A stretch of DNA of 64,000 nucleotides, taken from the NCBI RefSeq assembly GCF_000269605.1, contig NZ_AKCI01000001.1, positions 868,001-932,000 of the forward strand, given 5' to 3'. The position numbers were made by a program, and so were the translations under genes. Source of the stretch: Scardovia wiggsiae F0424. GTDB lineage: Bacteria > Actinomycetota > Actinomycetes > Actinomycetales > Bifidobacteriaceae. How positions within the stretch are numbered: position 1 is the stretch's first letter; each line of letters opens with the position of its first letter. This document shows positions 17,500 to 33,769 of the stretch, piece by piece. Below the pieces are notes generated by a model that ran no database searches, was not told the DNA's origin, and was given only the letters and a program-made list of their open reading frames with translations.

Positions 17500-17576
<77 letters not shown>

Positions 17577-17590
17577 ATTGCATAGCACTC

Positions 17591-17628
17591 AAACCCACGT
17601 CATGGTCGTCCCATGACGTGGGTTTTTA
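17591..17628 (+). terminator. Terminator after tRNA-Pro
   Basis: The 14-bp perfect stem AACCCACGTCATGG / CCATGACGTGGGTT is followed by TTT. The IS element end abuts its T-run. Confidence 0.85.
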
Positions 17629-19010
17629 GGGTATCCGGAGGAAAGGTGTGTTTTTATTTTGGGTGTGTTTAGCCTATGTGTCTTTTTCTGGTAGAGATTC
17701 CGGGTAGGTAGTCCGTGTGGGTGAGGTTTATTCCGGTGTTAATATGTGCTGGTCCGGTTTCTGGTTCTATGGTTTCTTGTTTCTTGTGTAGTTTTAGATC
17801 TGTTTGGCAGAGGAGGCTGATTGGGTCTTGGGGATTTGGTGAGTGCAGATAGCACCACCATTCCACCGCTCGTTTCATATGATCTTCAGACAGCCCACGG
17901 TGGTATCGTACGAGATTCTTGATTTGCGCGTTGATTCCACCCTTAAGAGCATTTGTTGGTGAAGTGAGATTCTCGTGAGTTTGTGCGATGAGTTCAGGAT
18001 CGAGAAAGGTAAAGAGGGTTCCTTCCTGCGCCATGTTTTTCCAGGGTTTTATACGCTCGTCGAGTGTTGTAGTGAGTCCACCACCATTCTTGGGTGGATT
18101 TCACCCAGTGAGGAATATCACCGGGAAGAGTATTCCTGTGCCATGTTTTCTCGTTCACCCATGGAGCAAACTGTTCATAAAACTTGTGCAGAAGAGTTAA
18201 CCAGTAGGTCGATTCTTCAATCGTACGAACAGTAACAAGCTGTTTAGCTAAACCCCACAAGGCTTGTGGTGCAGGCAGTTTTGGGTGCATGCTAGCGCAG
18301 GTTCGAATGTTACGTTTGATGTGCACCAGACAGCGTTGAACACGAGTATCCGGCCAACAGTTACTGATTTCTGTTAGTGCTGCGGCATGCCCATCCGTAA
18401 CCACCATAAGAGGGTCAGCAAGCCTGGAAAAAAGAGCGTGGTACGCGTTCTTGTTTTCTTTATCACACCACTGCCACGCGATACCCTTGCCCTGGGCTAG
18501 AGCAACCAGAAGACACCAGCCATACGGTAAATAGATTCCATCAATCTGGACTTGATTATAAATTTCCCCGGTCATAGGAATACGAGGCTTCACCTGCCAG
18601 CACCAGCTTATTCGTGTTCTCAACGTCCGTTCTGTAAAAGAAGAACTACCCTGAGGTTGAAAGTTTTTCCCCCCCCCCCCCCATGAGCCAGTCAAGAAAA
18701 CTTGTGAACACGGCTTCCTGACTGATATCTGGCCTGTGACGACTACTCGATGCTGCGCACTGCGTGCACCGCCACCGGATCTTTCCCGAGGATATTACCC
18801 CCGTTCCTTTTCATCCCAGTTTGCTGACAGATAGGACACTTGCGTGTGCTTTTCTTACGACCCATACACTAAACAAACCGCAACTAACACAGTCTACCAA
18901 GAAAGCCAAGCACACCCAAGAACAAGCCTCAAAAACTTAACTACACCCAATTTCGCCCGTCATCCCAACCCAAACCCCGAAATAAAGACACACTTTCCTT
19001 CCAGATACCC
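17629..19010 (-). mobile_element. IS256-family (IS1249-type) insertion sequence, degenerate
   Basis: About 1.38 kb is bounded by imperfect inverted repeats: left GGGTATCCGGAGGAAAGGTG from 17629, right (read inward) GGGTATCTGGAAGGAAAGTG from 19010. Similarity continues over ~35 bp (both run into GTGTGT-TTTATTT-GGG). The single gene inside is a broken transposase on the minus strand. Flanking 8-9 bp do not form a target duplication, so one side has probably been rearranged since insertion. On the right the element cuts a small open frame (19011-19192). Confidence 0.75.
17669..18865 (-). pseudogene. IS1249-type transposase with frameshifts
   Basis: From the ATG at 18865 the frame starts MGRKKSTRKCPICQQTGMKR, a zinc-ribbon with CPIC and, after a one-base shift near 18795, RWRCTQC. 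It then reads FTSFLDWLMG, meets a run of 14 C (18669-18682 plus strand) that puts the rest out of frame by one base, continues with the catalytic core (VQIDGIYLPYGWCLLVA, MVVTDGHAAALTEI, TRVQRCLVHIKRNI), and shifts again near 18020 into GTLFTFLDPELIAQTH and KRAVEWWCYLHSPNPQ. The parts together equal a normal ~390-residue IS256-type transposase. Three shifts make it inactive unless they are sequencing errors. Confidence 0.8.
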
Positions 19011-20340: not shown

Positions 20341-20649
20341 AGGAAGCGTTCCTTTCGAAGAGGGGGCCGGTGGCGACGATCTGCTGGACGCCTTCTTGAT
20401 GTTCCAACGCGAACTGACCCGCTACCAGCACAGTGGTCGCACCGAGGCTGCCGGCGCCTGGGTCCTTGTCGGCCCCGGCTGACACCGTCCTTGACCGCCT
20501 CCAGCTGACCGCTGAGGCCCTGTCTCCCGATGAGGACTGGCGTGACCAACGCACCGCCCGGCGCTGGAGTGATGCTGGTATGCCGACGATCGCGCGAGAC
20601 TTGGTCTACTTCGCCCAGGTCGCCGGACGCACAGCCGCCCAACGTCCCA

Positions 20650-21062
20650 GTCCATGAGGTAGCCACAGTTCAGCATCGCCGCGACGGCGTCGACGCTCGA
20701 CCGTGCCTGACGGGCTGACTGGCCGAAACACTGGGCATGGAAGGTCATCTCCTCCCGGCAGGTCAGGCCGTACTGGAGTCCGCCCTTCTGGGACACATAT
20801 CCCAAACAGGAACGCCCTTCGGGTGATCCCCATGCGACGTCACCGAAGTCGGCGGACAAGAGACCGCTACAATCCTGACGAGAGTGGTCTTCCCGGCGCC
20901 ATTTGACCCGAACAGGCCCACCATCTCGCCGGGGTAGAGATCCAAGGAAACCCCTCGTAGTGCCGGGACCTCGTACCCGCCATGGACGACGTACTTCTTC
21001 GTGAGCTGTGCGATCGACAGTGCAGGTCTTGGTAGAACGCGCTCTGGGATGGCCGATGACAT
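20650..21062 (-). pseudogene. ABC transporter ATP-binding protein, truncated and frameshifted
   Basis: An ATG at 21062 overlaps the end of the EXLDI gene (TGACATG). The frame runs LTKKYVVHGGYEVPALRGVS, then the Walker A GLFGSNGAGKTTLVRI. One base is missing just after this (near 20875); the next frame continues LLSADFGDVAWG and the Q-loop LGYVSQKGGLQYGLT, then EEMTFHAQCFGQSARQAR. After about 20650 similarity stops: no LSGGQ signature, Walker B or permease is found. So the ATPase of an EXLDI-linked exporter has lost its second half. Confidence 0.75.
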
Positions 21063-21063
21063 G

Positions 21064-21570
21064 TCAGATGTCCAGGACTTCGAAGGGGGGAATAGCGAGA
21101 GCTGATTCGACGCGTTCAGCCAAGGCGCCATCGACCTGGCCCAAGTGCTCAATATCGGGGTACACGACCATCGTTTTGTCGCCCGCGACCCAGAAGTCAC
21201 GATCCCACGTCTCGGGGTGGGACCACAGGTTCTCCTGGCCTGCGGCCCAGTCGGGCAGCTTCCGCTGGATCCTGGTGACGACAGCCAGCTGGTTCTTGGC
21301 GGTCTGGTAGACGGTGTCGATGCGGGTCCCCTCGGGGGCTGGTTGACTGACGCGGACCAGGCGTCGCCCCATGAAGGTGACCCTGTGGTCTACGCCGTCA
21401 GTGCGCAGCGCGAGTTCGATCTCCTCGTAGCCCGCGCCCGCTCGTTGGTGCTTCTTCACGTAGTCGCGGAGCGCCTCCGCGACAGCCGCCGACAGCCCAC
21501 CAGCGATCTCGCTAGCTTCGGTGAACAGGCTCACGTCGTCTTCCGCGACATACACGTTTCTACTAGGCAT
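21064..21570 (-). CDS. EXLDI family protein
   Basis: The 168-residue protein starts PSRNVYVAEDDVSLFTEASE, resembling a short ribbon-helix-helix-like N terminus (GGLSAAVAEALRDYVKKHQ), and ends in the family-defining Glu-x-Leu-Asp-Ile (EVLDI-stop). Known members lie next to ABC transporter ATPases in actinobacteria, as here; their function is not established, though the N terminus suggests DNA binding. The ATG at 21570 has a TATAAT 7 nt upstream and a matching -35, so the mRNA is probably leaderless. The gene is intact while its ABC partner is broken. Confidence 0.8.
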   Translation of the reverse strand: MPSRNVYVAEDDVSLFTEASEIAGGLSAAVAEALRDYVKKHQRAGAGYEEIELALRTDGVDHRVTFMGRRLVRVSQPAPEGTRIDTVYQTAKNQLAVVTRIQRKLPDWAAGQENLWSHPETWDRDFWVAGDKTMVVYPDIEHLGQVDGALAERVESALAIPPFEVLDI

Positions 21571-21577
21571 GATCATA

Positions 21578-21606
21578 ATTATACGCATATTTGTGACGCT
21601 CGTCAA
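21578..21606 (-). promoter_or_regulatory. Sigma-70-type promoter for the EXLDI gene
   Basis: On the minus strand TTGACG (21606-21601), a 17-nt spacer and TATAAT (21583-21578) end 7 nt before the ATG at 21570. Spacing and both boxes are near-consensus, and transcription would start at or next to the A of the ATG. Confidence 0.75.
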
Positions 21607-21621
21607 GTCCACCCACACACT

Positions 21622-22360
21622 TGACTCGTGCCACTTTAGTGCCCTGGGAGCTGGACGGCTGTGATGATGTCGGCGGCTTCGGCGGTGATCTGGGGTTGGG
21701 CGGTGATGGTGTGCCCGGCGATGGTGACCTCCACCACGCCGCAGGGGTCGACATCATGGGCCTTCAGGAAGTCGGTGACCATGGGGATGATCGTCTTGGT
21801 TTCGGCCTTGTTGCCCTGCCAGCACCCCACCTAGGGGGAAGCCACGGCGGTCGGTGAGCATCCCAATGGTGATCTGGGGTCGACGCGCTGCTCCCTGGAG
21901 AACCCCACCTTCCTGAGACTGTCTTCCTTATCGATCTCGAAATAGAGCGTGGACACGTCATAGAGGACGAGAGAGATCTCCACTGGCCGCCGCGTGGGAG
22001 CGCAGGGCCGCCTGGATCGCCGCCCGGCCAGCGCCACCGGCCCGGCTCCGGAGGGCGAGGTCAGTCTCTCCAGGTCAAGGGCCTGCTGGCCCGGGTGCAG
22101 GCGCTGGCGGCCGATCTCCATCAGGGCCGCCAGCTCAGCCTCGTCGTGGAACGAGCCCAGGTGGGCCAGGATCGTGCGCCTCCCGCCGGACTTGTCCACG
22201 ACCTGCACGGCGGTGGCGCCCGAGGCGGTACGCACTTTGCGCAGGTAGGGGCTCACCCCCACTACCCACCGCCTTAGTGCCCCAGAGCCCCCTGCCACTC
22301 ACGCCGTTCCAACGAAAACCCCACACCGATCACCGAGAACCCGAAAAGTGGCACGAGTCA
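21622..22360 (-). mobile_element. IS1634-type element with internal deletion, intact ends
   Basis: A 739-bp segment is bounded by perfect 16-bp inverted repeats (TGACTCGTGCCACTTT at 21622-21637 and its complement at 22345-22360). It contains only the first and last parts of an IS1634/IS4-type transposase. It lies in front of the EXLDI promoter, whose -35 box is 15 bp away. No target duplication is evident. Confidence 0.7.
21636..22256 (-). pseudogene. IS1634-type transposase, internally deleted and frameshifted
   Basis: The frame opens VSPYLRKVRTASGATAVQVV, then RTILAHLGSFHDEAELAALM and LYDVSTLYFEIDKEDSLRKV, which is the N-terminal part of IS1634-type transposases. Around 21850 it shifts frame and goes on with GNKAETKTIIPMVTDFLKAH, after which it jumps to a C-terminal-like VTIAGHTITAQPQITAEAAD. 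The middle of the catalytic DDE region is missing, so no active enzyme can be made. Confidence 0.75.
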
Positions 22361-22396
22361 GGTCTGTGGGTTACCAAACAGAACGGAGCAGCGGGG

Positions 22397-22742
22397 ATGG
22401 CTGAAATTATCGATAACCTCGGCGGGTACGGACAGTTCACAAGTGCGGCAAATAGCCTGATCCGTTCCCTTGAGAAGACTGCTGTGTCGAACGCGGCACC
22501 AGGATTACGCGCGCAGGGGGGCAGTTCTTGGTGTACTTGGCACATGCGGTTTGTTGGGCGCCGTCGGCGGACTGCATCACTGGCACAATCAAAGCAAACA
22601 AGCGAAGAGCGCTACCCAAGAAACAGCTCGAAACGAACTCCGCACCGCTCTGAACGCTGAAGTCCCTCAACAGACTGACCATTACGATGAGGATGCGTTC
22701 CGCGAGGAAAGTCGCGTCGATAGCTCAACTTTACTTCGGTAG
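22397..22742 (+). pseudogene. Small membrane protein with one-base frameshift
   Basis: An ATG at 22397 opens MAEIIDNLGGYGQFTSAANS and LIRSLEKTAVSNAAPGLRAQG. At a run of six G (22515-22520 region) the hydrophobic continuation AVLGVLGTCGLLGAVGGLHH, a Lys/Gln/Glu-rich part and the end VDSSTLLR lie in another frame, stopping at 22742. Joined, it would be ~115 residues with one membrane helix. The gene is convergent with gajB, 10 nt apart. Function unknown; the frameshift may be real decay or a homopolymer error. Confidence 0.45.
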
Positions 22743-22752
22743 GGCTATCGGC

Positions 22753-24441
22753 TTACTTCGCAGCAATAGCTTGCCAATCGGCGGCAGCGAGCCAATCGCG
22801 TATCTCCTGGCGACTAGTCATCATCGTCGGCGCGACGTTTTCCAGAAAACGAGATCTTTGTTTCGGACGCTTTGGATTATAGTCATCGGGCACTACATCA
22901 CTTGAAGTCACCAGGACCCCATGGCGAGCCCTGGACAACATGACCGCAAACGTTCGTGCTTCCTCCGCGATCTCCGCATTTGATACTGCGTGATAGTTTG
23001 GAAGGCATTCTTCCTCGAGACCGACGATGATCATCCAGTCGAATTGCTGACCTTTGCCAGCATGGCCGGTGAGTAGATGCACTCCGCCCTGGGTGATGAG
23101 CGAGTCGGTATCGCCGATCTGAATGCGCTTCTCAACCTCGTCCGGCGTGACATTGTCCCGCAGGAGGTCCACACACCAGTCGATTGCGTTCGAGAGCGCC
23201 GTGCGCTCGTCAGGATCCTGCTCCTCGTCCAGGCGAGCCGCCTGACGTACGAATTCAGGCGGGTCGTCTGCGTTGCGGAACTTGTCGAGTGTAATCTCCC
23301 GTAACATACTTCGGATCTTTTGCGCAATCGACCTATCCAGCACTCCTTCGTCCCACAGGCTATACTGTAGGCCGCTATTCCGTATCGCCTGGTCTACGAA
23401 ACGGCGCCGGTACTTGGTTCGCGCTGAGATTCCGATTCGTTGACGAGGCGCTCGTTCTTGCGACAAGATACCTGCGCAGAATTGTGTGATGTAGCGAGCC
23501 TCTTCTTCCGTATCAGTAAAGTTGATACACCCTGCGAAACCGTCAGACGGCCACGAACCAGGATTAGCAGCAGTCAGCGTTTGTCCACCTGTCATATCGC
23601 TCAGTGAATTCACTGCCTTCAGCACGGCGGGTGACGAACGGAATGACTCGGCGAACTCGATAGTCTTTGAACACTCAGCTTGCAGTTGTCCCATGACCAG
23701 CTCAGGTCTGGCTCCAGCAAAGCTATAGATTCCTTGCGCCATGTCACCGGCGTAGGTGGTCCTTCCATACCCGATACGCTGCACGATTCGCAGCTGTTGT
23801 GGCGTTAGGTCTTGAAACTCGTCGACTATGACAGCCCCAAAGTGCCGTTGATATAGCCTGGTTACCTCGTCGTTGGCAAGAATCAGTTCAGCTAGTCGTG
23901 GCAAGTCATCGTAGGTCAGTCGTCGCTCAGACTGACGCTGCCGCTCAATCCCCACAGCGTATTCGTTGCCCGAACGCTCGAGTTCTGCTAGAACCTGTTC
24001 ATCGCTGAACCCGTGCCGCTTTACTGAGCTGATCTTGCTCTGTACATCAGCGCTTAAGCTTTTCAGATTCCGGGCGCGACATTGTTGAGCAACCCAGTCA
24101 CTCTGCGGCATGGTCCATAATGCCGGGTCAACGCCGACCACGTTGCCGTGCGCCTGAATAATCCGGGCAGAGAGACCGTGGAAGTTGCACACGGTGACCG
24201 CCTCACGCATCTGGTGAGGTGTCAGGTAGCGGCTCAGGCGATCGCGCATGTTGTCACGTGCTCGATTAGTAAAGGTCGTCACCAAGATGCGCTGCGGTGA
24301 CTTGACGTCCTGCCGAGACAGCAGTCCCTCTACTCGCAGCGCCAATGTTTCAGTCTTACCGCAGCCAGCTGGAGCGATGACGAGGAGCGAGAGCTCGGGA
24401 TAGTCTCGGACTTGTGTCTGTTCTGAAGTGGTATCAACCAT
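22753..24441 (-). CDS. gajB: UvrD/PcrA-like helicase of a Gabija system (GajB)
   Basis: The 562-residue superfamily 1 helicase has Walker A VIAPAGCGKTETLALR (about 21-36), TTFTNRARDNMRDRL (Ia), Walker B VIVDEFQDLTPQQLRIV (about 205-220), motif III TYAGDMAQGIYSFAGA, TGHAGKGQQFDWMIIVG (V) and MLSRARHGVLVTSSD (VI). It starts one base after the gajA stop (TGAGATG), so the two are translated together. In Gabija the helicase partner senses or generates DNA/nucleotide signals and works with the GajA nuclease to stop phage. It is somewhat longer than the ~490-residue Bacillus GajB. Unlike its neighbours it has no frameshift. Confidence 0.88.
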   Translation of the reverse strand: MVDTTSEQTQVRDYPELSLLVIAPAGCGKTETLALRVEGLLSRQDVKSPQRILVTTFTNRARDNMRDRLSRYLTPHQMREAVTVCNFHGLSARIIQAHGNVVGVDPALWTMPQSDWVAQQCRARNLKSLSADVQSKISSVKRHGFSDEQVLAELERSGNEYAVGIERQRQSERRLTYDDLPRLAELILANDEVTRLYQRHFGAVIVDEFQDLTPQQLRIVQRIGYGRTTYAGDMAQGIYSFAGARPELVMGQLQAECSKTIEFAESFRSSPAVLKAVNSLSDMTGGQTLTAANPGSWPSDGFAGCINFTDTEEEARYITQFCAGILSQERAPRQRIGISARTKYRRRFVDQAIRNSGLQYSLWDEGVLDRSIAQKIRSMLREITLDKFRNADDPPEFVRQAARLDEEQDPDERTALSNAIDWCVDLLRDNVTPDEVEKRIQIGDTDSLITQGGVHLLTGHAGKGQQFDWMIIVGLEEECLPNYHAVSNAEIAEEARTFAVMLSRARHGVLVTSSDVVPDDYNPKRPKQRSRFLENVAPTMMTSRQEIRDWLAAADWQAIAAK

Positions 24442-24442
24442 C

Positions 24443-26047
24443 TCAAGCGCTCTCGATATCGTCGAGCAGGTTCATGATGCTTGTGATTCTCGAAGCAGTT
24501 GTTTTATCAAGAATATTCGCCACCATGATCGCCCCTTGAGTCTTGTACTTGCTCTTGCTTCGGAGGAAGTTGGCGAGGTCAGCCCCGGTTGGCGAGGCGT
24601 TCGCGCCCGTACGCTTGACGTTGCTCAACTCGTTTTTGCTGAATGCGCCGCTATGCTGCATCGCGTCCCACAGATGCTCAGCATCGAACGCTTTAGAGTA
24701 TTCTTCTTCAAGATCTCTCTCAGAGACCCAAATCGAGCGCTTTTTGAAATCACGCTCTTCAACGCCGATGCTCTTGGAAGTTTTCTCAACGGCATCGCGG
24801 TCGATCAACACAGAGAGCTGTGCATTGAAACCATCCTCACCGAACAATTTCCAGATGACGCCCATGTCGCCAGCACCTTCAGCCTCAATCACACTAACCC
24901 CTAGACGATCTAGATCACGTCCGGTGAGTTCGGCGACTCGCTCGAGGATGATTCGATCTGCTATTCCCTCGACGGCGACGACATGACGGGCGGTTAACGG
25001 CTCCAGTTTGTTTCGTACCCACCATCGAAGCACGGCGCGTTGATCATCATCAAGAAGTCTACTTGTTGGTTGAATGACTCTACCGCGGTCTCGTACCGAC
25101 ACGATCAGTTCGGGATCAAACGCGCTCACAATATCAGACGAGTGAGTGGCGATGATCTTCTGGTTATCGCCATCCTTCAGCAGTCGAGCCAGGCTTCGCT
25201 GACTGCTGGGGTGCAGATGAATCTCCGGCTCATCAATAGCGACGATGTTCGCTCCATTCGAGACGAGGTCGTACAGCGCGATGGCATAGAGCGCCCGTTT
25301 TCCATCCGACTGGTCACCAATAGACTTTCCGTGGACTTGAAGTCGTACGCCGTTCAGAACGTCATCGTTCGCAATGGCTCCCGGGATGAACGTTAAGTCG
25401 TCTCTATCGATCCGCTCGGGAAGCGCGGTACTGAGCTGACTGGACATTTGTCCGCGAAGGTCAGATAGAACATTCGAGTTTTGGAGCTGTTCGCCGATCG
25501 CACCTAGTAGGTTGTCGAACCTATCCTGTTCGTCGCCCAGTTCCACGCCTGCAAGCACTTCATCGAGAAGAGTACGGCGATCATCGTCAAGGGTACGAGC
25601 GCGATCATTGGCATTCAACAGCGTCCAGCCGATAGCCCGCAGCTGCTCGCGCGAGATCTGTCGGCCTATATTCTTATTGGGCACAGTGCGATTGATCGAC
25701 AATGTCTCATTGTCATCGAAGGTAGCTTCGAGACGTACGGTCAGTGTCAGTTCGGCTTCGCCTGTCGGGTCAACGGTGATCTCATCCGCAAACAGTGCCT
25801 TCTCGTCGTCTGAGAACCCACAAAGGTCAGCCTCGACAGAAAGAGGCAGACCGGGATCCCGAAGATCGTCAAGCGTGATCTGATTGTACAGCTGGGCCGT
25901 GCTTGCGCCGAGCAATAGGTTGAGACAACGCAACAACGACGATTTACCCACGTCATTCGGCCCAATGAGCACCATATGGCGTCTCACTTCCAGTTCCAAG
26001 TCCTGCAGACGGCTGTGGTTTTCTACTTTGACTCGCGCGAGATGCAT
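24443..26047 (-). CDS. gajA: OLD-family ATPase/TOPRIM nuclease of a Gabija system (GajA)
   Basis: The 534-residue protein has an ABC-type ATPase half, with Walker A VLIGPNDVGKSSLLR (26-40), signature GDQSDGKRALYAI (244-256), Walker B NIVAIDEPEIHLHP (267-280) and the switch histidine in IIATHSSDIV. A TOPRIM nuclease half follows: HVVAVEGIADRIIL with Glu360 and LSVLIDRDAVEK with the DxD at 416-418. This order with a UvrD-like helicase directly downstream is the class 2 OLD, i.e. Gabija, architecture. GajA nicks DNA and is held back by nucleotides until phage replication depletes them. The fused TOPRIM separates it from PARIS, where TOPRIM is a second protein. Confidence 0.9.
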   Translation of the reverse strand: MHLARVKVENHSRLQDLELEVRRHMVLIGPNDVGKSSLLRCLNLLLGASTAQLYNQITLDDLRDPGLPLSVEADLCGFSDDEKALFADEITVDPTGEAELTLTVRLEATFDDNETLSINRTVPNKNIGRQISREQLRAIGWTLLNANDRARTLDDDRRTLLDEVLAGVELGDEQDRFDNLLGAIGEQLQNSNVLSDLRGQMSSQLSTALPERIDRDDLTFIPGAIANDDVLNGVRLQVHGKSIGDQSDGKRALYAIALYDLVSNGANIVAIDEPEIHLHPSSQRSLARLLKDGDNQKIIATHSSDIVSAFDPELIVSVRDRGRVIQPTSRLLDDDQRAVLRWWVRNKLEPLTARHVVAVEGIADRIILERVAELTGRDLDRLGVSVIEAEGAGDMGVIWKLFGEDGFNAQLSVLIDRDAVEKTSKSIGVEERDFKKRSIWVSERDLEEEYSKAFDAEHLWDAMQHSGAFSKNELSNVKRTGANASPTGADLANFLRSKSKYKTQGAIMVANILDKTTASRITSIMNLLDDIESA

Positions 26048-27232
26048 AGTATGTCCTTTACATATCCCAGCTCAGATCAGCAGCCTGGGCTTGTGGTCAC
26101 CGTCACGACTCTACACTCTTTCTTCGACCTAATAGTTCGCTGGGAGTACACGGTGGCGCCGAAGCACCGCTTCCGCAAGTTTGTCGTGGTCAGTAACCGC
26201 CAGCGCTACGAGGAGCTGGTAGCTCAGCGCGGCGAGACCAGTGTCTGGTACCGCCGCCCCATACCGGGCTTCGACGTGAGTGACCCCGAGGTGTTCTCGC
26301 TGGAGCAGTTCACCATCGATGGTGTCGATGTCGCCTTCCAGCGCCACGCTGACAGCACCTCACAGGTCTATGTGGTCGATCTGGGCGACGAGATCATCCG
26401 GGCAGGCAAGCCGGTGGTCGTGGCTTTCCGGTTCCGTACCAGGACCCGCCAGCAGGGGCATGTCGTCCACATCGACATTGACCGGCCGACCAGAGGACTG
26501 GACATCGAGTTTCACTATGGCGATGCGGCTGTCGCCGAAGCCAGGATGCTTGACTTCGCCTCGATCGGTGAGGGAGGACGTGTCGAAGACGATCGCGGTA
26601 CTCAGACGCTGCGCTACCGCTACGACGGCTGGCTGTTCCCCAGAGCCGGCCTGGTCTTCTTCTGGAGCCTTCCAGAGGCCGGCGCCCCAGCGAGGACGAG
26701 ACTCAGCTACCCCATCATGGCACCACAGACGCCAGCGACACGCATCCCGTCCATGACTACTGGCGTACCAGCAAGCGACAGCGACCCTCAGCACAAGACA
26801 CCCGTTCAACCAAGGCGGCCTGAGCGGGCATGCTCGTGCCGGACCGGTGGGATGACCCACCTCACGGTTCAGTCGCCGCCCATAGCGCTCACCTCCTTGA
26901 TCGGCCGGATCGGGCAGCAGCAGGATACATCGTCTTTAGACTCATCGTCTCTGGATCGAAAGTCATGGGGCCTATGGGATGTGGTGGTGCCCAGCCTCAG
27001 CCCCAAGTCGCCGCTCTCCGCCATCACTGGCGAGTTCGGTAGGCGGGTGCGCCTGCGCCGCGAGGAGCTGGAGCTGTCCCAGGAGAAGCTGGCTGAGCGC
27101 TGCGAACTGCACTGGACCTACATCGGCCAGGTCGAATGTGGTCAGCGCAACCTCAGCCTGCACAACATCGTGCGTATCGCCAAGGGCCTGGTCAGCGATC
27201 CAGGGGAGTTGGTGCGAGGGTTGGGAGCGTAG
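26043..27232 (+). CDS. Hypothetical beta-rich protein with C-terminal XRE helix-turn-helix (possibly two genes)
   Basis: One uninterrupted frame. The first ~245 residues (for example VTVTTLHSFFDLIVRWEYTV, RPTRGLDIEFHYGDAAVAEA, FPRAGLVFFWSLP) resemble the C-terminal domain that follows an HTH in some Streptomyces regulators, so the true N terminus may be missing. Then comes a Pro/Ser-rich stretch without structure. The last ~80 residues are an XRE HTH: FGRRVRLRREELELSQEKLA, LHWTYIGQVECGQRNLSLHN. A separate regulator starting at a GTG near 26981 is plausible. The 5' end overlaps the divergent gajA start, suggesting that gajA arrived beside and truncated this gene. Confidence 0.5.
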
Positions 27233-27435
27233 AGGCTCGCCACATCAGCCACGCCTTCACTGATGTCCTGGGTGTGCACCGTACCTCCATGGGTGGTGTT
27301 GAACGAGGAGAACGTAACCTCACCCTGCAGAGTTTGGAACGCATCGCTGCTACACTGCACATCGATCCGACGGAGTTGTTGCAGCGGCGAGGAGAGCAGT
27401 CCGAAGTCAAGACCCCTCGTCACCCATCTCGGTAA
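27233..27435 (+). pseudogene. 3' half of a second XRE regulator
   Basis: Directly after the stop at 27232 another frame encodes DVLGVHRTSMGGVERGERNL and SLERIAATLHIDPTELLQR, the last three helices of an XRE domain, and ends at 27435. The first helices and a start are absent. It is similar in pattern to, but not a copy of, the HTH just upstream. It is a remnant joined to the neighbouring regulator. Confidence 0.6.
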
Positions 27436-33422: not shown

Positions 33423-33551
33423 TCAGCGGCCTCACACATGTTTTGTTATCTGTTTATTATTTACTATTTTGTTTTTGATCCGTTTTTCATTCTAACAGCA
33501 GCCCTGCGGACATATCCCATCGATATCCCGCCGCGCCGTGTTCTCACCCTC

Positions 33552-33633
33552 TGGTGGTAAAACACGCAGATACAAAAACTATTTTGGCAGTTTTCCACAT
33601 TTTTTGTTTTCGTATCTGCGTGTTTTACCACCA
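33552..33633 (+). repeat. 82-bp dispersed palindrome, copy 2
   Basis: It has the same arms as the copy at 5326, with one change in the right arm (TTTTCGTATC). The central TTTTCCACA is at 33591-33599, 39 nt from the left end. It is intergenic, upstream of the DUF4037 gene. Confidence 0.9.
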
Positions 33634-33769
33634 GAGGCTGCATATCAGTGACAGCTTTACACTGGAAGCAGCTTCGCAACGGCAGCAGCTGCACATCATT
33701 ATTGGATAGCCGCATGCTGCCTTCCACCGCTGCGTGCTGCAATACCTGTAATCATCGTCAGGCGATACC

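What the first reader, a model, noticed from the sequence alone, without database searches (positions are those of the whole stretch)
22753..26047. Intact Gabija anti-phage pair inside an otherwise decayed island
gajA (ATPase + TOPRIM) and gajB (UvrD-like helicase) are full-length, one base apart, and keep all visible catalytic motifs, while nearly every other island gene is broken by indels, stops or deletions. This contrast suggests selection for the defence function after the element died. The helicase is longer and the nuclease shorter than the Bacillus pair, so it may be an actinobacterial variant.
Basis: partly seen in the sequence, partly recalled or inferred. Interest (0 to 1): 0.7.

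Follow-up and report, generated by a model that had tools for sequence, protein, structure and literature searches.

The report
Ordinary Gabija phage-defence gene pair
Two adjacent intact genes encode Gabija, a common bacterial anti-phage nuclease system, here in an actinobacterial branch already covered by public models; they sit among partly decayed mobile DNA, but nothing shows that selection preserved them.

Summary
The pair is real. GajA (534 aa) and GajB (562 aa) are open end to end, one base apart, and match full-length PADLOC Gabija models at 809 and 834 bits; the catalytic motifs are present. The subfamily is widespread: of 52 related loci, 41 carry both complete genes and 48 have actinobacterial titles, so the 'actinobacterial variant' exists but is already modelled. 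'Selection after the element died' is not established. Decay is real but overstated: an EXLDI gene is intact, one 'broken' IS is a 99.7% copy of another in the genome, and the cut gene beside gajA keeps an open frame over its surviving part. The closest relative, contig L086, shows gajAB divergent from a membrane-type gene; in the window a deletion took that gene's front half and probably gajA's original upstream DNA, so expression is uncertain. L086's own gajA has a nonsense codon. Synonymous sites are saturated, and the collections searched gave no second strain of this species. The genome carries a second, different Gabija. A new member of a known kind, low interest.

The parts
24443..26047 (-). 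gajA: ABC-type ATPase plus TOPRIM nuclease, 534 aa, ATG start, AAAGGA ribosome-site-like sequence just upstream
   Evidence: PADLOC PDLC00075 809 bits over 1-531 of the 533 residues given; Pfam AAA_15 and OLD-like_TOPRIM; motif residues K35, H302, E360, D416/D418, D445, K502; upstream letters
22753..24441 (-). gajB: UvrD/Rep-like SF1 helicase, 562 aa, starts one base after the gajA stop codon
   Evidence: PADLOC PDLC00121 834 bits over 2-561; Pfam UvrD-helicase and UvrD_C; model pLDDT 90.7, UvrD/Rep fold
26048..26108 (.). 61 bases between the gajA start codon and the cut neighbour; the junction of the inferred deletion lies here
   Evidence: No similarity above shuffles to the DNA upstream of gajA in L086; the neighbour's DNA similarity to L079 starts at 26109
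26109..26740 (+). C-terminal half of a divergent membrane-type gene; its N-terminal half is missing here, while L086 has the N-terminal part divergent from gajA
   Evidence: 65% identity to residues 181-369 of the 385-aa L079 protein; L086 carries residues 10-49, up to the contig end
26990..27232 (+). XRE-type helix-turn-helix sequence, in frame with the cut gene by read-through; a second HTH-like stretch follows in another frame to 27435 (my reading)
   Evidence: Pfam HTH_31, HTH_3; PADLOC Control_protein; frames
21611..22371 (-). IS1634-type remnant with both 27-nt inverted ends and an internal deletion, ending 381 bases beyond gajB
   Evidence: inverted repeat I1; 74% DNA identity in three pieces to an IS1634 transposase record
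21064..21618 (-). intact EXLDI protein gene
   Evidence: TIGR04342 103 bits, model positions 1-124 of 124
20422..21389 (-). pieces of a broken ABC-transporter ATPase
   Evidence: ABC_tran positions 1-39 of 137 only in one frame, no Pfam match in the next; overlapping frames
17623..19010 (-). mutator/MULE-type IS, young copy (99.7% to another copy in the genome)
17500..17576 (+). tRNA-Pro(CGG); the DNA beside it differs in each of the three genomes of the genus

Best explanation
This is a complete Gabija operon of an actinobacterial subfamily, probably acquired horizontally with mobile DNA beside a tRNA gene. By analogy with the Bacillus system, GajA forms a tetramer whose ATPase domain senses nucleotides and whose TOPRIM domain cuts DNA, and GajB is the bound SF1 partner; together they restrict phage DNA. 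Identity, gene layout and motifs are shown here; complex formation, cutting and phage restriction are inferred from homologues. The surrounding element is a partly decayed mosaic. One deletion removed the front half of the divergent membrane-type gene and probably gajA's original promoter region, so whether the pair is expressed is open (about even).
For: Full-length PADLOC matches to both partners. Adjacency conserved: in 11 of 11 loci where this gajB was found, gajA lies directly upstream with -11 to +3 bases between; 47 of 52 genome loci show at least part of gajB right behind gajA. ATPase and TOPRIM residues of the literature have counterparts in the window. Predicted fold of GajA matches solved GajA chains, Z 25.7 over 389 residues. 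Horizontal spread: neither of the 2 other genomes of the genus has it at E 1e-30, the best relatives lie in other families, and pairs occur on Corynebacterium, Rhodococcus and Mycolicibacterium plasmids. L086 shares the divergent gene arrangement.
Against: By structure the class 1 TsOLD scores slightly above BcGajA (VIA Z 28.1 against 25.7; also first by Foldseek E-value, though its TM-scores are lower; phmmer 38.3 against 36.9 bits). GajB's best solved matches are UvrD/Rep, with no solved GajB among the 50 rows shown. No sigma-70-like promoter on either strand of 22300-27300, where 1.8 are expected by chance. Of 14 other GajA-clade loci fetched from the same family, 13 have no gajB of this type in the stretch held (in one, L032, the contig ends 441 bases behind gajA). 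49 genomes of the genus that holds the nearest membrane-gene homologue lack this gajA.
Confidence: 0.87

Rival explanations
1. One reading: the carrying element died long ago and gajAB alone was kept intact by selection for phage defence.
For: Both genes open and catalytic motifs kept; in a simulation, neutral drift of 1% per site left both frames open in 3% of 400 trials and 2% in none; purifying pattern against L086.
Against: No date for the decay. The cut gene next door keeps an open frame over its surviving part, the EXLDI gene is intact and an IS there is young, all compatible with recent death. The deletion at gajA probably removed its promoter. L086's gajA has a nonsense codon.
Confidence: 0.25
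2. gajAB is itself on the way out: already silent through loss of its promoter, and intact only because too little time has passed.
For: Junction within 61 bases of the start codon, no similarity to L086's upstream DNA, no sigma-70-like site. Departures from residues conserved in the close clade are the most of seven for GajA, 16 of 173, but third of seven for GajB, 15 of 143.
Against: Relative-rate test shows no clear excess over L086 (11 of 12 single-outgroup tests not significant). Over all 12 sequences the window departs at only 2 of 68 (GajA) and 1 of 82 (GajB) otherwise invariant columns. The consensus scan is weak evidence in this kind of bacterium. A ribosome-site-like AAAGGA is present.
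Confidence: 0.35
3. The 534-aa protein is a solitary class 1 OLD nuclease and the helicase is an unrelated neighbour.
For: TsOLD is the top structural match. GajA-clade genes without gajB are common in this bacterial family.
Against: PADLOC Old scores 78.8 bits against 809 for GajA. The helicase matches a GajB model at 834 bits, and the two genes are paired in 47 of 52 loci.
Confidence: 0.03

Closest known systems
Gabija of Bacillus cereus VD045 (GajA 578 aa, GajB 493 aa)
   Same: Domain order, gene order, and active-site letters. By alignment K35, H320, E379 and (weakly) D511 fall on K35, H302, E360 and D445; D432/D434 and K541 are matched to D416/D418 and K502 by motif and position only.
   Different: GajA 44 residues shorter, GajB 69 longer; only a weak pairwise sequence match (36.9 bits).
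PADLOC subfamily PDLC00075 / PDLC00121
   Same: Both proteins match end to end at 809 and 834 bits.
   Different: Nothing of note; this is a member.
gajAB on contig L086 (public title: Candidatus Saccharibacteria MAG S18M_Sa_002; probably misbinned, my inference)
   Same: gajA 76%, gajB 68% identical; a membrane-type gene of the same family divergent upstream of gajA.
   Different: About 240 bases upstream of gajA kept; gajA has one internal stop codon. An HTH gene on the contig is 88% identical to one in genome G355 of another family of the order.
Class 1 OLD nuclease of Thermus scotoductus (TsOLD)
   Same: ATPase plus TOPRIM fold, Z 28.1 over 373 residues.
   Different: Single-gene class without a helicase partner (class definition from PMC10781630, passage; that TsOLD belongs to class 1 is recalled).

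Membership tests
Gabija | GajA with ABC-type ATPase and TOPRIM domains | tested here: met
   Pfam AAA_15 81 bits, OLD-like_TOPRIM 43 bits, both above cut-off; PADLOC GajA 809 bits
Gabija | TOPRIM active-site residues E, DxD, D, K | tested here: met
   E360 aligns with E379; D445 with D511 in a weak stretch (1.9 bits); D416/D418 and K502 by motif and position. Published residues from passages. The published invariant glycine G409 lies one place from the column of window G391. Across 12 sequences the second D of DxD is absent in L022 and L075
Gabija | GajB: SF1 helicase with Walker A and DExQD box | tested here: met
   APAGCGKT and VDEFQD in the protein; G28 K29 T30 D207 E208 D211 invariant in 24 rows; PADLOC GajB 834 bits
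Gabija | gajA and gajB adjacent in one operon | tested here: met
   one base apart; conserved in relatives. Co-transcription itself not tested
Gabija | GajA-GajB 4:4 complex | not testable with these tools
   only single chains could be predicted
Gabija | anti-phage activity | not testable with these tools
   needs plaque assays
Class 1 OLD nuclease | single gene without a helicase partner | tested here: not met
   GajB-type helicase one base away

The most novel reading that the evidence does not exclude
A defence operon kept by selection while its carrier decays, with gajA now driven by a new promoter made by the deletion that destroyed the divergent membrane-type gene: promoter capture on a dying mobile element.
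Probability: 0.15. Interest if true: 0.4.

Novelty: new member of a known kind. Interest (0 to 1): 0.2.

Why it matters
It adds one well-supported Gabija locus, in a small genome that carries a second Gabija of another branch, and gives a concrete junction at which transcription can be tested. It also cautions that intact cargo among broken genes is not by itself evidence of selection.

Tried and rejected
dN/dS with relatives: synonymous changes saturated (pS 0.77-0.79), so no ratio is given. IMG/VR scan with the GajA alignment: 9 loci, the long matches 22-24% identical, no close relative. First genome-contig scan with the single protein found none; the alignment found 123 relatives, of which the best 80 (77 loci) were kept. 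Shared neighbours with other loci: no tblastx match at E 1e-4 in 26 loci (24 gajA or gajAB loci and the two sister-genome sites); in 52 further loci only short weak pieces at E 1e-3, the L086 one being an HTH. Donor test: 0 of 49 genomes of genus g34, which holds the L079 homologue, has this gajA at E 1e-20 (no positive control in that set), so no donor is shown. Membrane-type gene as a regular third Gabija component: rejected, found beside gajAB only in L086 among the loci held. Plasmid search for the L086 HTH and for the L079 protein: no match. 'Two-TM' label for the L079 protein: dropped, a hydropathy scan shows one clear segment starting at residues 15-21. Mended on checking: the L028 kinase-like gene was read on the wrong strand and the cut-off was strict, so 'no PADLOC match' in my notebook is wrong; one search gives weak PD-T4-6 matches. 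Papers: abstract and outline seen for PMC12407980; passages for PMC10781630, PMC8136825, PMC10822852, PMC10681800; the rest only as search listings. I make no claim that anything is absent from print.

Full report
What is there. gajA (24443-26047, minus, 534 aa) and gajB (22753-24441, minus, 562 aa) are open and one base apart. PADLOC matches are end to end: GajA PDLC00075 809 bits, GajB PDLC00121 834 bits; the next GajA model scores 130 and the Old model 79. Pfam agrees. PADLOC's models of this branch are 536 and 565 positions long, so the unusual lengths against Bacillus (578 and 493) are the norm of a known subfamily.

Motifs. The alignments to solved GajA place K35 on K35, H320 on H302 and E379 on E360, and, in a stretch too weak to stand alone, D511 on D445. 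D432/D434 and K541 have no aligned stretch there; I match them to D416/D418 and K502 by motif and position. The published residues come from passages. AlphaFold models (pLDDT 83.5 and 90.7) match TsOLD (Z 28.1, 373 residues) and solved GajA (Z 25.7, 389 residues) for GajA, and UvrD/Rep for GajB. The higher score of TsOLD is against a simple reading by fold; profile scores and gene pairing decide for Gabija.

Distribution. In the family sample 16 of 189 genomes hold a GajA relative at E 1e-30, the window's own included; neither of the other two genomes of the genus does. Of the other 15 I fetched 14: one (L029) has this gajB beside gajA and 13 do not, one of these (L032) running into a contig end. 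Eight of 396 genomes of the order, own included, hold this GajB at E 1e-40. In one search, 12 loci were tested (three plasmid records out of 191 with a match, L029, seven loci brought in by gajB, and L038, the own genome's second Gabija): gajB was found in 11, and all 11 have gajA directly upstream, -11 to +3 bases apart. In genome contigs, 77 loci were kept; 52 of them, L086-L137, are this subfamily and the other 25 are distant (26% identity or less, or a 43-residue match). By title 48 of the 52 are Actinomycetota; the others are titled Saccharibacteria (L086, L090), Planctomycetaceae (L102) and Sporosarcina (L123). At least part of gajB lies behind gajA in 47 of 52 at E 1e-20, 48 at E 1e-8 (L115). 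Of the four without, the matches of L103, L131 and L132 end within about 150 bases of a contig end and L111 is broken. Both genes are complete in 41 of 52. Lesions occur in gajA of L086, L111 and L134 and in gajB of L090 and L124; the other six of the 11 incomplete loci lie at contig ends. Plasmid homes include C. callunae pCC2, R. aetherivorans pN2 and M. chubuense pMYCCH.01.

Surroundings. The island lies beside tRNA-Pro (17500-17576), a site whose neighbours differ in the two sister genomes. An IS at 17623-19010 is a 99.7% copy of one at 554 kb in the genome and 94% of one in G002; the transposase is split over two frames in all three copies, so the split is not damage special to this island. 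An IS1634 remnant with both ends but a deleted middle lies beyond gajB. An ABC ATPase is in pieces. An EXLDI gene is complete. So decay is real but not nearly universal.

The junction at gajA. The ORF called 25976-27232 is a read-through of unrelated parts. Its part 26109-26740 is the C-terminal half of a protein whose homologue L079 has 385 residues; the window aligns to residues 181-369. In L086, the closest gajAB relative (76% and 68%), the N-terminal part of a protein of the same family (residues 10-49, up to the contig end) stands divergent from gajA, about 240 bases away. The window thus probably lost that front half plus gajA's own upstream DNA: 61 bases remain and show no similarity to L086's, and the consensus scan found no promoter (weak evidence). 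If the two neighbours are the same gene, which the two non-overlapping pieces cannot prove, gajAB and this neighbour were together before the deletion, and gajAB did not arrive after it.

Selection. Against L086 pN is 0.146 (gajA, 533 codons) and 0.181 (gajB, 562 codons), pS 0.77 and 0.79: constrained over the divergence, but saturated and not dated to after the island's decay. Relative-rate tests with six outgroups per gene give no significant excess except gajB with L073 (35 against 16, p 0.011, uncorrected for 12 tests); at sites fixed in all six outgroups the window has 6 against 4 (gajA) and 6 against 1 (gajB) changes, p 0.75 and 0.125. In the close clade GajA of the window departs at 16 of 173 otherwise invariant columns, the most of seven; GajB at 15 of 143, third of seven. 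Simulated neutral drift keeps both frames open in 69% of 400 trials at 0.1% divergence, 33% at 0.3%, 3% at 1% (transition bias and an indel share of 8% are my assumptions). Without a date the contrast is undecided; the open frame over the surviving part of the cut gene fits recent death.

Verdict. A genuine, ordinary Gabija of a known, mainly actinobacterial branch. Function is likely if expressed, and expression is the open point. Mechanism is taken from the Bacillus and Pseudomonas work: nucleotide-regulated GajA nuclease in a complex with GajB (passages), and a proposal that Gabija acts on linear DNA ends not held by RecBCD (abstract). Whether GajB unwinds DNA is disputed (passages).

Noticed in passing
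G000:C1 about 1,279,700-1,283,500; locus L038 4722-8508: A second Gabija pair of a different branch (GajA PDLC00090 759 bits, 675 aa; GajB PDLC00103 599 bits, 593 aa) in the same genome, next to an MmeI-type restriction-modification gene.
   Followed up: partly
The three kinase-like proteins (L028, L031, L027) match PADLOC PD-T4-6 models weakly and in part (39, 16.5 and 22.5 bits); one has a sub-threshold RIO hit. Possibly a separate nuclease-kinase defence module.
   Followed up: partly
L034-L037: GajA-like open frames extend well past the GajA part (731-955 codons stop to stop); the one read, in L034, has a long lysine- and alanine-rich C-terminal tail.
   Followed up: no
window 26109-26740; L079, L080, L081, L082, L083, L084: A family of proteins with one clear N-terminal hydrophobic segment (L079) and no Pfam or PADLOC match for L079; found in 6 of 297 genomes including the own.
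   Followed up: partly
L086: Contig titled Saccharibacteria whose HTH gene is 88% identical to one in genome G355 and whose membrane-type piece is 78% identical to L079's of G342, both genomes of one genus in the window's order; probably misbinned.
   Followed up: partly
window 33545-33645: A repeat of about 90 bases, roughly symmetric, with 20 other places in this genome and one in G002.
   Followed up: no
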